Source: an uncultured Bacilli bacterium (GTDB lineage: Bacteria; Bacillota_I; Bacilli_A; Izemoplasmatales; UBA1188). From it: a DNA stretch of 33,879 nt. The stretch lies in assembly GCA_905235635.1 (NCBI GenBank), contig CAJOMC010000009.1, positions 1 to 33,879 of the forward strand. The letters are read 5' to 3'. Of the stretch, positions 16,818 to 18,940 are shown one piece after another (position 1 is the first letter of the stretch; the number at the start of each line of letters is the position of its first letter). The notes under the pieces are model-generated. The model was given only the letters and a program-made list of their open reading frames with translations, ran no database searches and was not told the origin of the DNA. Made by a program: the position numbers and the translations under genes.

Positions 16818-17612
16818 CTAGTTTATCCTTTTATTTCCATATACTGTTTCAAATTCTTCAATTAAATCACTCATTTCTTTAGATACGTGTGACTTCACAA
16901 AATTATATGCTTCTACTGGTACACCATAATATGCTTCCGCAATAGCCATACTGATTGCGGCTGTAGTGTCGCAATCTCCTCCAATAGAGATTGTGGTTTT
17001 AGCGCAATCATAAAAATCTTCACTAATTAAGAATGAGAATATTGCCTCTGGAACGCTCTTTTGGCATATCTCATAGAAGCCATAATTATGTCTTAAATCA
17101 TCATAGGTGAAAGATGCAATCTGTGGATACTCTTTTGTGGCATATTCTTTAATTTCATCCTTTGTTTTATTATGTAGTGCCATATAAATACATGTCGCAG
17201 TAACAAGCGCTCCCTTTAATCCTTCAGGATGATTATGGGTTATATTAGTGATAGTATTTGTTAGTGCAACTAATTCATCCATATCTTTTGCGGCCCATGC
17301 GACAGATGATACTCTCATTGCGCTTCCGTTGCCAAAACTTCCATATGGCATTGGGTTATTTGAATGTATCCAATGGTAGAAGTTTCCACCATATCCTCTT
17401 CCAGGATAGGCAAGAGTCCATTTGTGCAGATACTTTGTCGCACTTGCTTCATCTTTTTCCTTAGAGTGAAGAAGAAAGTCCATAAATGCACAAGTACATA
17501 CAGAGTCATCAGTAAAGAAACAATCATCATCCATTAGATTAAATGATTTTGTCCTGATGTTATTAAATTCGTATTTGCTTCCTGTTATATCGCCAAATAA
17601 TGCCCCAATCAT
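16818..17612 (-). CDS. ADP-ribosylglycohydrolase family protein
   Basis: A 264-residue enzyme of the ADP-ribosylglycohydrolase (DraG/ARH) family, which removes ADP-ribose from proteins, nucleic acids or small molecules using two magnesium ions. Metal-site motifs are visible at both ends: GALFGDITGSKYE and FTDDSVCTCAF near the N-terminus, and GGDCDTTAAISMAIAEAYYG near residue 205. The order and spacing are standard and the length is normal. The substrate cannot be inferred. It has its own promoter with a palindrome filling the spacer (17656-17684), and is followed after 9 nt by a membrane-protein gene. The XRE regulator gene lies directly upstream on the same strand. Confidence 0.88.
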   Translation of the reverse strand: MIGALFGDITGSKYEFNNIRTKSFNLMDDDCFFTDDSVCTCAFMDFLLHSKEKDEASATKYLHKWTLAYPGRGYGGNFYHWIHSNNPMPYGSFGNGSAMRVSSVAWAAKDMDELVALTNTITNITHNHPEGLKGALVTATCIYMALHNKTKDEIKEYATKEYPQIASFTYDDLRHNYGFYEICQKSVPEAIFSFLISEDFYDCAKTTISIGGDCDTTAAISMAIAEAYYGVPVEAYNFVKSHVSKEMSDLIEEFETVYGNKRIN

Positions 17613-17706: not shown

Positions 17707-18102
17707 TTATATTAGTTGCCTTTTCTTATATTCAAGTGTATACTTGTAATAGTTATACAAGTATTTATCGTGAAATTCTAGAATAGGTTGGCTATCTTTA
17801 ACGTTAAGGAATAGCAAATCATTGTTTATAAGAGTATTAATTGTGCTTACGACTTGACTAGTGTCTTCCAAATACATATTTCTCTCGGTAAAAAAGAAGG
17901 AAATTGGTAAGCAGATTGCATCAGCAATTTTATGTAATGTTAGTATACTTAAGTTATTAGCTTTACCATTTTCTAGGTTCATAATAGTTTGATCACTTAC
18001 ATTAGCTAATTCTGAAAGTTTATTAACTGACAGGTTTTTTTGTATACGGTAAGACTTAAGTTTTAGACCAATATTTGTAATAAGAGTGTTTTTGTTATCC
18101 AT
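17707..18102 (-). CDS. XRE family helix-turn-helix regulator
   Basis: A 131-residue regulator with an N-terminal Cro/CI-type helix-turn-helix. Residues about 10-65 read IGLKLKSYRIQKNLSVNKLSELANVSDQTIMNLENGKAN and then the usual LTLHKIADAICLPISFFF. The C-terminal 60 residues match no domain I know and may mediate dimerisation or sense a partner. It is divergent from the DUF6883-like/DUF4926-like pair. The shared 86-bp gap contains overlapping, nearly symmetric promoters with their -35 boxes in inverted repeat arms, so it probably represses itself and the pair. The start codon lies about 40 nt after the predicted transcription start. Confidence 0.88.
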   Translation of the reverse strand: MDNKNTLITNIGLKLKSYRIQKNLSVNKLSELANVSDQTIMNLENGKANNLSILTLHKIADAICLPISFFFTERNMYLEDTSQVVSTINTLINNDLLFLNVKDSQPILEFHDKYLYNYYKYTLEYKKRQLI

Positions 18103-18137
18103 ATTTTCTCCAAATATATTTGTATAGTTATTAAATA

Positions 18138-18177
18138 TTTACAATTATATTATAGTATGATAATATTTAATTGTAAA
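18138..18177. promoter_or_regulatory. Face-to-face divergent promoters within an inverted repeat
   Basis: TTTACAATTA (18138-18147) and its exact complement (18168-18177) are 30 bp apart. On the minus strand TTTACA (18172-18177), 17 bp and TATAAT (18149-18154) make a near-consensus promoter for the XRE gene. On the plus strand TTTACA (18138-18143), 17 bp and TAATAT (18161-18166) make a weaker promoter for the gene pair. Both -35 boxes lie in the repeat arms. Confidence 0.7.
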
Positions 18178-18188
18178 CGAGGTAAAGC

Positions 18189-18716
18189 GTGAAATTAAAA
18201 CCAGGTGGGGGAAACAAGCTACAACCATATTCAAAGTATAATGGAAGATACATTGAAACTGACATGTCTGACTTAGTTGGTGAAATTGTACAAACTAAAT
18301 TATTTGGTATGAAAAATGGTACTACAAATGATTATCCCTTTCCATGTTCATCCAAATTTTCAAAAGAATACTGCGAGGTTTATATATCCTTTATTTTTGA
18401 AGGTAATTTTGAAATACCAATCGAAAAAATGATTAAGTATTTATTTATAAAAAAAGATATAAGTGATAAATCTAAATGGCTTGACTTACATGGATATAAT
18501 TTATCTAATTATAAAGAATTCGAAAAAGACTTAATTAATCACTCTAGAAAACATGACTTAGAATTTGAAGATATAAATGATTATGGTGAACTTATTTTTA
18601 GTCAAATTATTAGAATTCCTGAAAAGAATAATTTAATTGGCAAGGCAGTATGGAAATTAGGAATTAACGACCAAAATTTAAAACTTGTTACATTTAAGAG
18701 ATATAAGGAGAAGTAA
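18189..18716 (+). CDS. DUF6883-like protein, first gene of a two-gene unit
   Basis: A 175-residue protein starting with GTG, with GAGGT 6 nt upstream. The N-terminal stretch (KLKPGGGNKLQPYSKYNGRYIE) resembles linkers found before toxin-like domains in polymorphic or phage-associated proteins. From about residue 80 it follows the DUF6883 pattern as I know it: KMIKYLFIKKDISDKSKWLDLHGYNLSNYKEFEKDL, then GKAVWKLGINDQNLKLVTFK at the end. No catalytic motif is evident. The next gene starts 2 nt later and looks like DUF4926, a family I recall seeing beside DUF6883. Base composition is even more A+T-rich than the flanking housekeeping genes, suggesting transfer. A toxin-antitoxin or immunity role is only a guess. 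Confidence 0.6.
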   Translation: MKLKPGGGNKLQPYSKYNGRYIETDMSDLVGEIVQTKLFGMKNGTTNDYPFPCSSKFSKEYCEVYISFIFEGNFEIPIEKMIKYLFIKKDISDKSKWLDLHGYNLSNYKEFEKDLINHSRKHDLEFEDINDYGELIFSQIIRIPEKNNLIGKAVWKLGINDQNLKLVTFKRYKEK

Positions 18717-18718
18717 AA

Positions 18719-18940
18719 ATGGATATTATAGTTTATAAAACAAAAGTAAAGATTTTAGTAAGTAATAAATCTTTAAACAAAGAAGTTCAATGTCTAAACT
18801 GCTTTGGGCTTGTTATAGATTATTCCGAAAAAGATGATTATTATACTGTTGAGTTTGAATACATTACTAATAATGGTGAAATAGATACGGAGATTGTTTT
18901 TTTAAAGAGAAACGAGTTCGTTGTTTTAGAAGATAGTTAA
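18719..18940 (+). CDS. DUF4926-like small protein, second gene of the unit
   Basis: A 73-residue protein in the DUF4926 style, a small beta-barrel of about 60-70 residues. The pattern G-x-V-x-D-Y..x-Y-x-V-E-F..G..x-E-I/V..L-x-x-x-x-L is seen in CFGLVIDYSEKDDYYTVEFEY, then NNGEIDTEIVFLKRNEFVVLE. The acidic composition (more D/E than K/R) would suit an inhibitor of the basic partner encoded just upstream, but that is inference. The ribosome binding site AAGGAGAAG lies in the end of the previous gene. No clear terminator follows in the 138-bp gap to the convergent esterase gene. Confidence 0.6.
   Translation: MDIIVYKTKVKILVSNKSLNKEVQCLNCFGLVIDYSEKDDYYTVEFEYITNNGEIDTEIVFLKRNEFVVLEDS

What the first reader, a model, noticed from the sequence alone, without database searches (positions are those of the whole stretch)
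17707..18940. Candidate three-gene system: XRE regulator divergent from a DUF6883-like/DUF4926-like pair
Two small, A+T-rich genes 2 nt apart, resembling families I recall as neighbours, face a dedicated XRE regulator. They share a near-symmetric promoter region. A basic first protein with a toxin-linker-like N-terminus and an acidic small second protein resemble a toxin/antidote or defence module. This is the best candidate here for an undescribed system.
Basis: partly seen in the sequence, partly recalled or inferred. Interest (0 to 1): 0.65.

Follow-up and report, generated by a model that had tools for sequence, protein, structure and literature searches.

The report
Standalone modular toxin–immunity cassette with repressor
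A three-gene cassette encodes a predicted RNA-cutting toxin, its likely antidote and a switch protein, and the toxin begins with a short conserved tag that related bacteria also attach to quite different toxins, which suggests an undescribed family of small modular toxin systems.

Summary
17707-18102(-) encodes an XRE protein, 18189-18716(+) a DUF6883-like protein (Pfam 25.2 bits, cut-off 27) and, 2 nt later, 18719-18940(+) a small acidic DUF4926-like protein (no Pfam hit itself; Pfam-positive homologues sit in the same position elsewhere). The pair recurs at some 35 loci: standalone, at the C-terminus of an RHS-sized protein, and at the C-terminus of phage MuF/portal-type proteins. That pattern marks a polymorphic toxin/immunity cassette. 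A confident model of the canonical DUF6883 domain (pLDDT 94.9) best matches, at full length, the CdiA-CT Kp342 tRNase (6cp9, TM about 0.6), a BECR-fold RNase. A divergent XRE gene is present at 8 of 13 leader-bearing DUF6883 loci, a tandem one at one more.

The new element is a 22-residue N-terminal leader (MxxKxGGGxxxQxYDxxxGRY). It also heads toxins with other domains (Ntox28 with CdiI_3 immunity; Ntox24-like; deaminase-like; nuclease-like), mostly beside a divergent XRE gene, and is under protein-level purifying selection. None of 15 leader-bearing genomes has an EssC over cut-off. I read it as a repressor-controlled, probably intracellular, modular toxin–immunity system. Toxicity, neutralisation and the leader's role are inferred.

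The parts
17707..18102 (-). XRE/Cro-type repressor (131 aa), divergent from the toxin gene
   Evidence: HTH_3 E 1.7e-8, 34.8 bits; XRE at the same place in L004, L007, L012, L016, L086, L110
18138..18177 (.). candidate operator: palindrome TTTACAATTA...TTTAATTGTAAA holding two interlocked divergent promoters
   Evidence: 8 of 200 dinucleotide shuffles give as good a palindrome, so suggestive only
18189..18716 (+). putative toxin (175 aa), GTG start
   Evidence: DUF6883 25.2 bits, E 2.1e-5; homologues; AlphaFold2 model
18189..18254 (+). leader MKLKPGGGNKLQPYSKYNGRYI, shared with standalone toxins of other types
   Evidence: profile hits, E 1e-15 to 2e-7 per genome for the full leader; alignment A16; selection test
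18414..18701 (+). DUF6883 / predicted BECR RNase core (residues 76-171): three helices then a four-stranded sheet; conserved K80, Y84, K94, G102, N107, T168(S/T)
18719..18940 (+). DUF4926-like small acidic protein (73 aa), putative immunity protein/antitoxin
   Evidence: position and size conserved at nearly every DUF6883 locus; alignments A3 and A11; hhalign E 0.002, probability 14%

Best explanation
A self-contained, repressor-controlled toxin-immunity cassette. The toxin is a small RNase of the BECR fold (nearest solved structure: the tRNase domain of CdiA from Klebsiella pneumoniae 342), probably cutting tRNA. The adjacent DUF4926-like protein binds and neutralises it. The XRE protein binds the palindrome between the two overlapping divergent promoters and represses its own gene and the toxin-immunity operon; a trigger (stress, phage infection or loss of the element) relieves repression and frees toxin. 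The toxin starts with a 22-residue leader that is a common module joined to exchangeable toxin domains and is probably recognised by a shared factor. Shown: gene order, homology, recurrence, predicted fold, leader sharing and protein-level selection on the leader. Inferred: catalysis, tRNA as target, neutralisation, repression, trigger, what the leader does.
For: DUF6883 is followed by a 54-83 aa DUF4926-like gene at essentially every intact locus, often with overlapping stop/start, whether it is standalone, at the C-terminus of a 3064-aa open frame (L006) or of phage proteins (L010: Phage_Mu_F 53.8 bits plus DUF6883 49.2 bits). Canonical domain model pLDDT 94.9, helices then four strands; best full-length PDB match 6cp9, TM 0.59-0.65, probability 0.99-1.00, with RelE/HigB toxins lower in the list; the window's own model has the same order and weakly the same hits. 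Invariant K80, Y84, K94 and S/T168 have nearly the spacing of the Kp342 active site K157, Y160, H170, R252, T255 (PMC9086364). An XRE gene is adjacent at 15 of 20 leader loci (14 divergent, 1 tandem). Leader loci with other toxins: Ntox28 33.0 bits followed by CdiI_3 29.8 bits, both over cut-off (L084); Ntox24-like 17-19 bits, under cut-off (L111, L112, L114). No genome of 15 has EssC over cut-off. Accessory distribution: no other genome among the 90 searched in the order, 11 of 224 in family f9.
Against: The window's DUF6883 score is just under the Pfam cut-off and its small protein has no Pfam hit. Foldseek E-values are not below 0.001. The R/K position of the proposed active site is not strictly conserved. 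Four leader loci have a ~390-aa protein of one unknown family in the XRE's place, and one has neither. One leader toxin (L081) has no evident DUF4926 partner. The absence of EssC does not exclude other export routes. No experiment shows toxicity or neutralisation.
Confidence: 0.68

Rival explanations
1. The toxin is an exported interbacterial weapon: the leader is a non-classical secretion or delivery signal, and the DUF4926-like protein protects the producer and its kin.
For: The toxin domain is otherwise found in delivered proteins: an RHS-sized protein (L006) and phage MuF/portal-type proteins. The leader stays constant while toxin domains change, as trafficking regions of polymorphic toxins do (PMC3482391, PMC5576092). 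It is under protein-level selection.
Against: No T7SS ATPase over cut-off in any of 15 leader genomes; no large N-terminal trafficking domain, and an in-frame stop just upstream of the start; dedicated XRE control and very small size are more typical of toxin-antitoxin systems (established knowledge).
Confidence: 0.18
2. A donor cassette of a larger polymorphic toxin locus: a spare toxin tip plus immunity gene kept for recombination, not an independent system.
For: Standalone cassettes are a known feature of polymorphic toxin loci (PMC3482391). L109 carries an extra orphan immunity-like fragment beside its pair.
Against: No full-length polymorphic toxin gene was seen at the examined leader loci, and the only DUF6883 match in the window's genome is this gene. 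It has its own ribosome-binding site and promoter-like sequences, a recurring XRE neighbour, and a leader under protein-level rather than DNA-level constraint.
Confidence: 0.08
3. The pair is not toxic: DUF6883/DUF4926 is a housekeeping or regulatory RNA-binding pair that happens to have a BECR-like fold.
For: Function untested; DUF6883 appears in no paper of the library and DUF4926 in one unrelated paper.
Against: Presence at the C-terminus of an RHS-sized protein and of phage MuF-type proteins with a small gene behind it, sporadic distribution, and domain exchange with Ntox families behind the same leader.
Confidence: 0.06

Closest known systems
CdiA-CT / CdiI of Klebsiella pneumoniae 342 (PDB 6cp9), BECR-fold tRNase
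   Same: predicted fold and order of elements; similar spacing of K, Y, K/H and S/T; small partner gene
   Different: 14-20% identity; no CdiA delivery protein; partner is DUF4926-like; XRE gene beside it
MuF polymorphic toxins of temperate phages (Jamet et al. 2017, PMC5576092)
   Same: the same DUF6883 domain and downstream small gene occur on phage MuF-type proteins (L010, L019-L022, L028-L048)
   Different: the window gene has no MuF or portal domain and no recognisable phage genes beside it
Standalone toxin-immunity cassettes of polymorphic toxin systems (Zhang et al. 2012, PMC3482391)
   Same: lone toxin domain followed by its immunity gene
   Different: own XRE regulator and a conserved leader shared by different toxin domains
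Type II toxin-antitoxin systems with a separate regulator (for example three-component paaR-paaA-parE; from my own knowledge)
   Same: three genes: regulator, toxin, protein antidote; toxin fold of the RelE/BECR class
   Different: regulator transcribed divergently; toxin domain and antidote from polymorphic toxin families; conserved leader

Membership tests
DUF6883 (PF21814) | Pfam score over the gathering cut-off (27 bits) | tested here: inconclusive
   window 25.2 bits, E 2.1e-5; homologues up to 71 bits; pairwise BLASTP with L002 E 2e-6
DUF4926 (PF16277) | Pfam score over the gathering cut-off (29.1 bits) | tested here: not met
   no hit for the window protein; hhalign E 0.002 but probability 14%; called DUF4926-like from position and weak alignment only
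Polymorphic toxin | C-terminal toxin domain exchangeable behind a constant N-terminal region | tested here: met
   leader shared with Ntox28, Ntox24-like, deaminase-like and nuclease-like domains; only Ntox28 is over its Pfam cut-off
Polymorphic toxin | N-terminal trafficking or delivery domain | tested here: not met
   ORF starts at the 22-aa leader with an in-frame stop upstream; no known domain there
Polymorphic toxin | immunity gene directly downstream | tested here: met
   18719-18940, 2 nt gap; same arrangement in homologues; immunity function itself untested
BECR-fold RNase | helices followed by a four-stranded antiparallel sheet, matching solved BECR toxins | tested here: met
   (6cp9 TM 0.59-0.65, E about 0.01); window's own model weaker
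BECR-fold RNase | RNA cleavage | not testable with these tools
   needs an assay
Type II toxin-antitoxin system | toxin inhibits its own host and is neutralised by its protein partner | not testable with these tools
   needs expression tests
Known anti-phage defence system (PADLOC) | match to a PADLOC model of toxin or partner | tested here: not met
   only generic HTH matches for the XRE protein

The most novel reading that the evidence does not exclude
The leader defines an undescribed family of miniature 'polymorphic toxin-antitoxin' systems: one conserved 22-residue tag, an exchangeable toxin domain with its matching immunity protein, and a dedicated repressor, acting inside the cell. The tag would be recognised by a common cell or invader factor that unleashes or directs any toxin it is attached to.
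Probability: 0.35. Interest if true: 0.75.

Novelty: new variant of a known kind. Interest (0 to 1): 0.52.

Why it matters
It offers a fold and a testable function for two Pfam families of unknown function (DUF6883 as a BECR RNase toxin, DUF4926 as its immunity partner), which also occur on phage head-associated proteins. It also shows a conserved short peptide shared by unrelated toxins in regulated standalone cassettes, linking polymorphic toxins with toxin–antitoxin systems and making the leader's role a direct experimental question.

Tried and rejected
DNA/protein searches of plasmid and phage collections with the window toxin found nothing; the leader alone found nothing in phages, plasmids or viral contigs, although 22 residues is a weak query there. 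The genome-contig scan with A9 gave only four loci. T7SS export was tested through TIGR03928 and not supported. The hypothesis that the leader is a DNA recombination handle was rejected: between toxins of different type the leader's nucleotides differ mainly at synonymous sites (37 of 37 pairs pN<pS; L014 against L080 in one genome pS about 1.0, pN 0.07). Insertion of an element at tRNA-Leu with a duplicated 3' end was not supported (no repeat). A dedicated conserved C-terminal domain of the XRE proteins was not convincing. No solved relative by sequence.

Full report
Observation. The three ORFs are as described, with an 86-bp divergent region between XRE and toxin and a 2-nt gap between toxin and partner. 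The toxin ORF cannot be longer: an in-frame TAA lies at 18183-18185, and GAGGT precedes the GTG. The three genes are A+T-rich even for this genome (G+C 0.26 against 0.308). Around them lie genes read as ordinary (ftsY- and ffh-like genes by sequence; an ADP-ribosylglycohydrolase and a GDSL/CE2 esterase; tRNA-Leu and tRNA-Gln; and a glutamyl-tRNA synthetase-like gene). In the other six genomes of the genus the synthetase-like gene is present, the two tRNAs lie near it in the five examined, but nothing related to the toxin was found, so the locus is accessory.

What the pair is. DUF6883 is reached at 25.2 bits (cut-off 27, E 2.1e-5). A phylum survey found DUF6883 in 8 of 392 genomes and a survey of one related family in 11 of 224. 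At every intact match a 60-80 aa gene follows, and many of these hit DUF4926. In phage contigs the same domain is the C-terminal part of MuF- or portal-type proteins, again followed by a 54-67 aa gene, usually with overlapping stop and start. In G422 it ends a 3064-aa open frame with RHS-like sequence. One domain plus one partner attached to several delivery architectures is the hallmark of polymorphic toxin cassettes (PMC3482391, PMC5576092). One DUF6883-like toxin (L081) lacks an evident partner, and L009 is a fragment.

Fold. The window protein models with a disordered middle but a confident core of three helices and four strands. The canonical phage domain models at pLDDT 94.9 with the same order. 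Its best full-length PDB match is the toxin chain of 6cp9, CdiA-CT of Klebsiella pneumoniae 342 (TM 0.59-0.65, Foldseek probability 0.99-1.00, E about 0.01), with RelE and HigB2 toxins lower in the list. Hits with lower TM to NTF2-like proteins are interspersed. The Kp342 active site is K157, Y160, H170, R252, T255 (PMC9086364). DUF6883 has invariant K80, Y84, K94 and S/T168 in window numbering, with intervals of 4 and 10 and then a terminal strand with K165-x-x-T168. I therefore propose a BECR RNase, most likely a tRNase. The assignment of catalytic residues is inference.

XRE. A divergent XRE gene is present at 8 of the 13 leader-bearing DUF6883 loci and a tandem one at one more. The other four have, in the same divergent position, a ~390-aa protein of one unknown family. 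In the MuF, RHS and DUF4417-associated settings no XRE gene was seen beside the pair in the stretches read. In the window two interlocked sigma-70-like promoters lie in a 40-nt palindrome. In L004, L007 and L086 the intergenic regions hold GAGT-N7-ACTC repeats (seen by eye).

Leader. The first 22 residues are conserved as a block starting at the initiator Met. A profile of that block alone, searched in 220 and then 279 genomes, found the DUF6883 genes that carry it and also genes whose remaining sequence is unrelated. L084 is Ntox28 (33.0 bits, cut-off 25) followed by a CdiI_3 immunity protein (29.8 bits, cut-off 28), with a divergent XRE. L082 is Ntox28-like (23 bits) with a divergent XRE. 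L085 has deaminase-like motifs (YwqJ 14.9 bits, under cut-off) with a divergent XRE. L080 has a PD-(D/E)xK-like motif by eye. L111, L112 and L114 carry a variant leader (SYKPGGGNKxQPxIPAGNG) on an Ntox24-like domain (17-19 bits, cut-off 24) with a divergent XRE and an 81-86 aa partner. Genomes such as G486, G487, G556, G610 and G484 hold two leader toxins each. In total 15 of 20 leader loci have an adjacent XRE gene. Leader codons differ mainly at silent sites between toxins of different type (pN<pS in 37 of 37 pairs; L014 against L080 in the same genome pS about 1.0, pN 0.07), so the peptide is selected, not merely carried along as DNA. The pairs are not independent, so the count is descriptive.

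How it probably works. XRE represses both transcripts; the DUF4926-like protein neutralises a BECR RNase; a disturbance frees the toxin. The leader must serve something common to all these toxins. Because 5 of 20 leader loci lack an XRE gene, the XRE protein is unlikely to be its only partner. Lack of EssC over cut-off in 15 leader genomes makes T7SS export unlikely but leaves other routes open.

Novelty. Toxin, immunity and cassette are of known kinds. The papers held name DUF6883 nowhere and DUF4926 once, in an unrelated study. The leader-defined, XRE-associated set of exchangeable standalone toxins was not found in the papers searched, which is an incomplete library.

Noticed in passing
L003, L005, L015, L017 (also remnant in L013): A different setting of the same pair: DUF4417 gene, then DUF6883, then DUF4926, with an ImmA/IrrE-like gene upstream at some loci. 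DUF4417 as a constant neighbour is unexplained.
   Followed up: partly
L002:2103-3296, L011:2087-3259, L014:102-1256, L109:2870-4033: A ~390-aa protein family without any significant Pfam match (one member also checked against NCBIfam) sits divergently in the place of the XRE gene at four leader loci (22-31% identical to each other).
   Followed up: partly
L109:1660-1848: Orphan fragment resembling the 86-aa partner of the Ntox24-like toxins, next to a DUF6883/DUF4926 pair: trace of a former second toxin or an immunity array.
   Followed up: no
L081:1680-2213: DUF6883-like leader toxin with divergent XRE but no evident DUF4926-like gene downstream.
   Followed up: no
L110:2572-3117: Leader and toxin core are in different frames, so the toxin is either a pseudogene or an assembly error; the partner and XRE genes look intact.
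   Followed up: no
window 16818-17612: ADP-ribosylglycohydrolase (105.6 bits) directly beyond the XRE gene; no link to the cassette was tested.
   Followed up: no
L004, L007, L086 intergenic regions: GAGT-N7-ACTC repeats near the start codons at the three loci with the short XRE: likely operator.
   Followed up: partly
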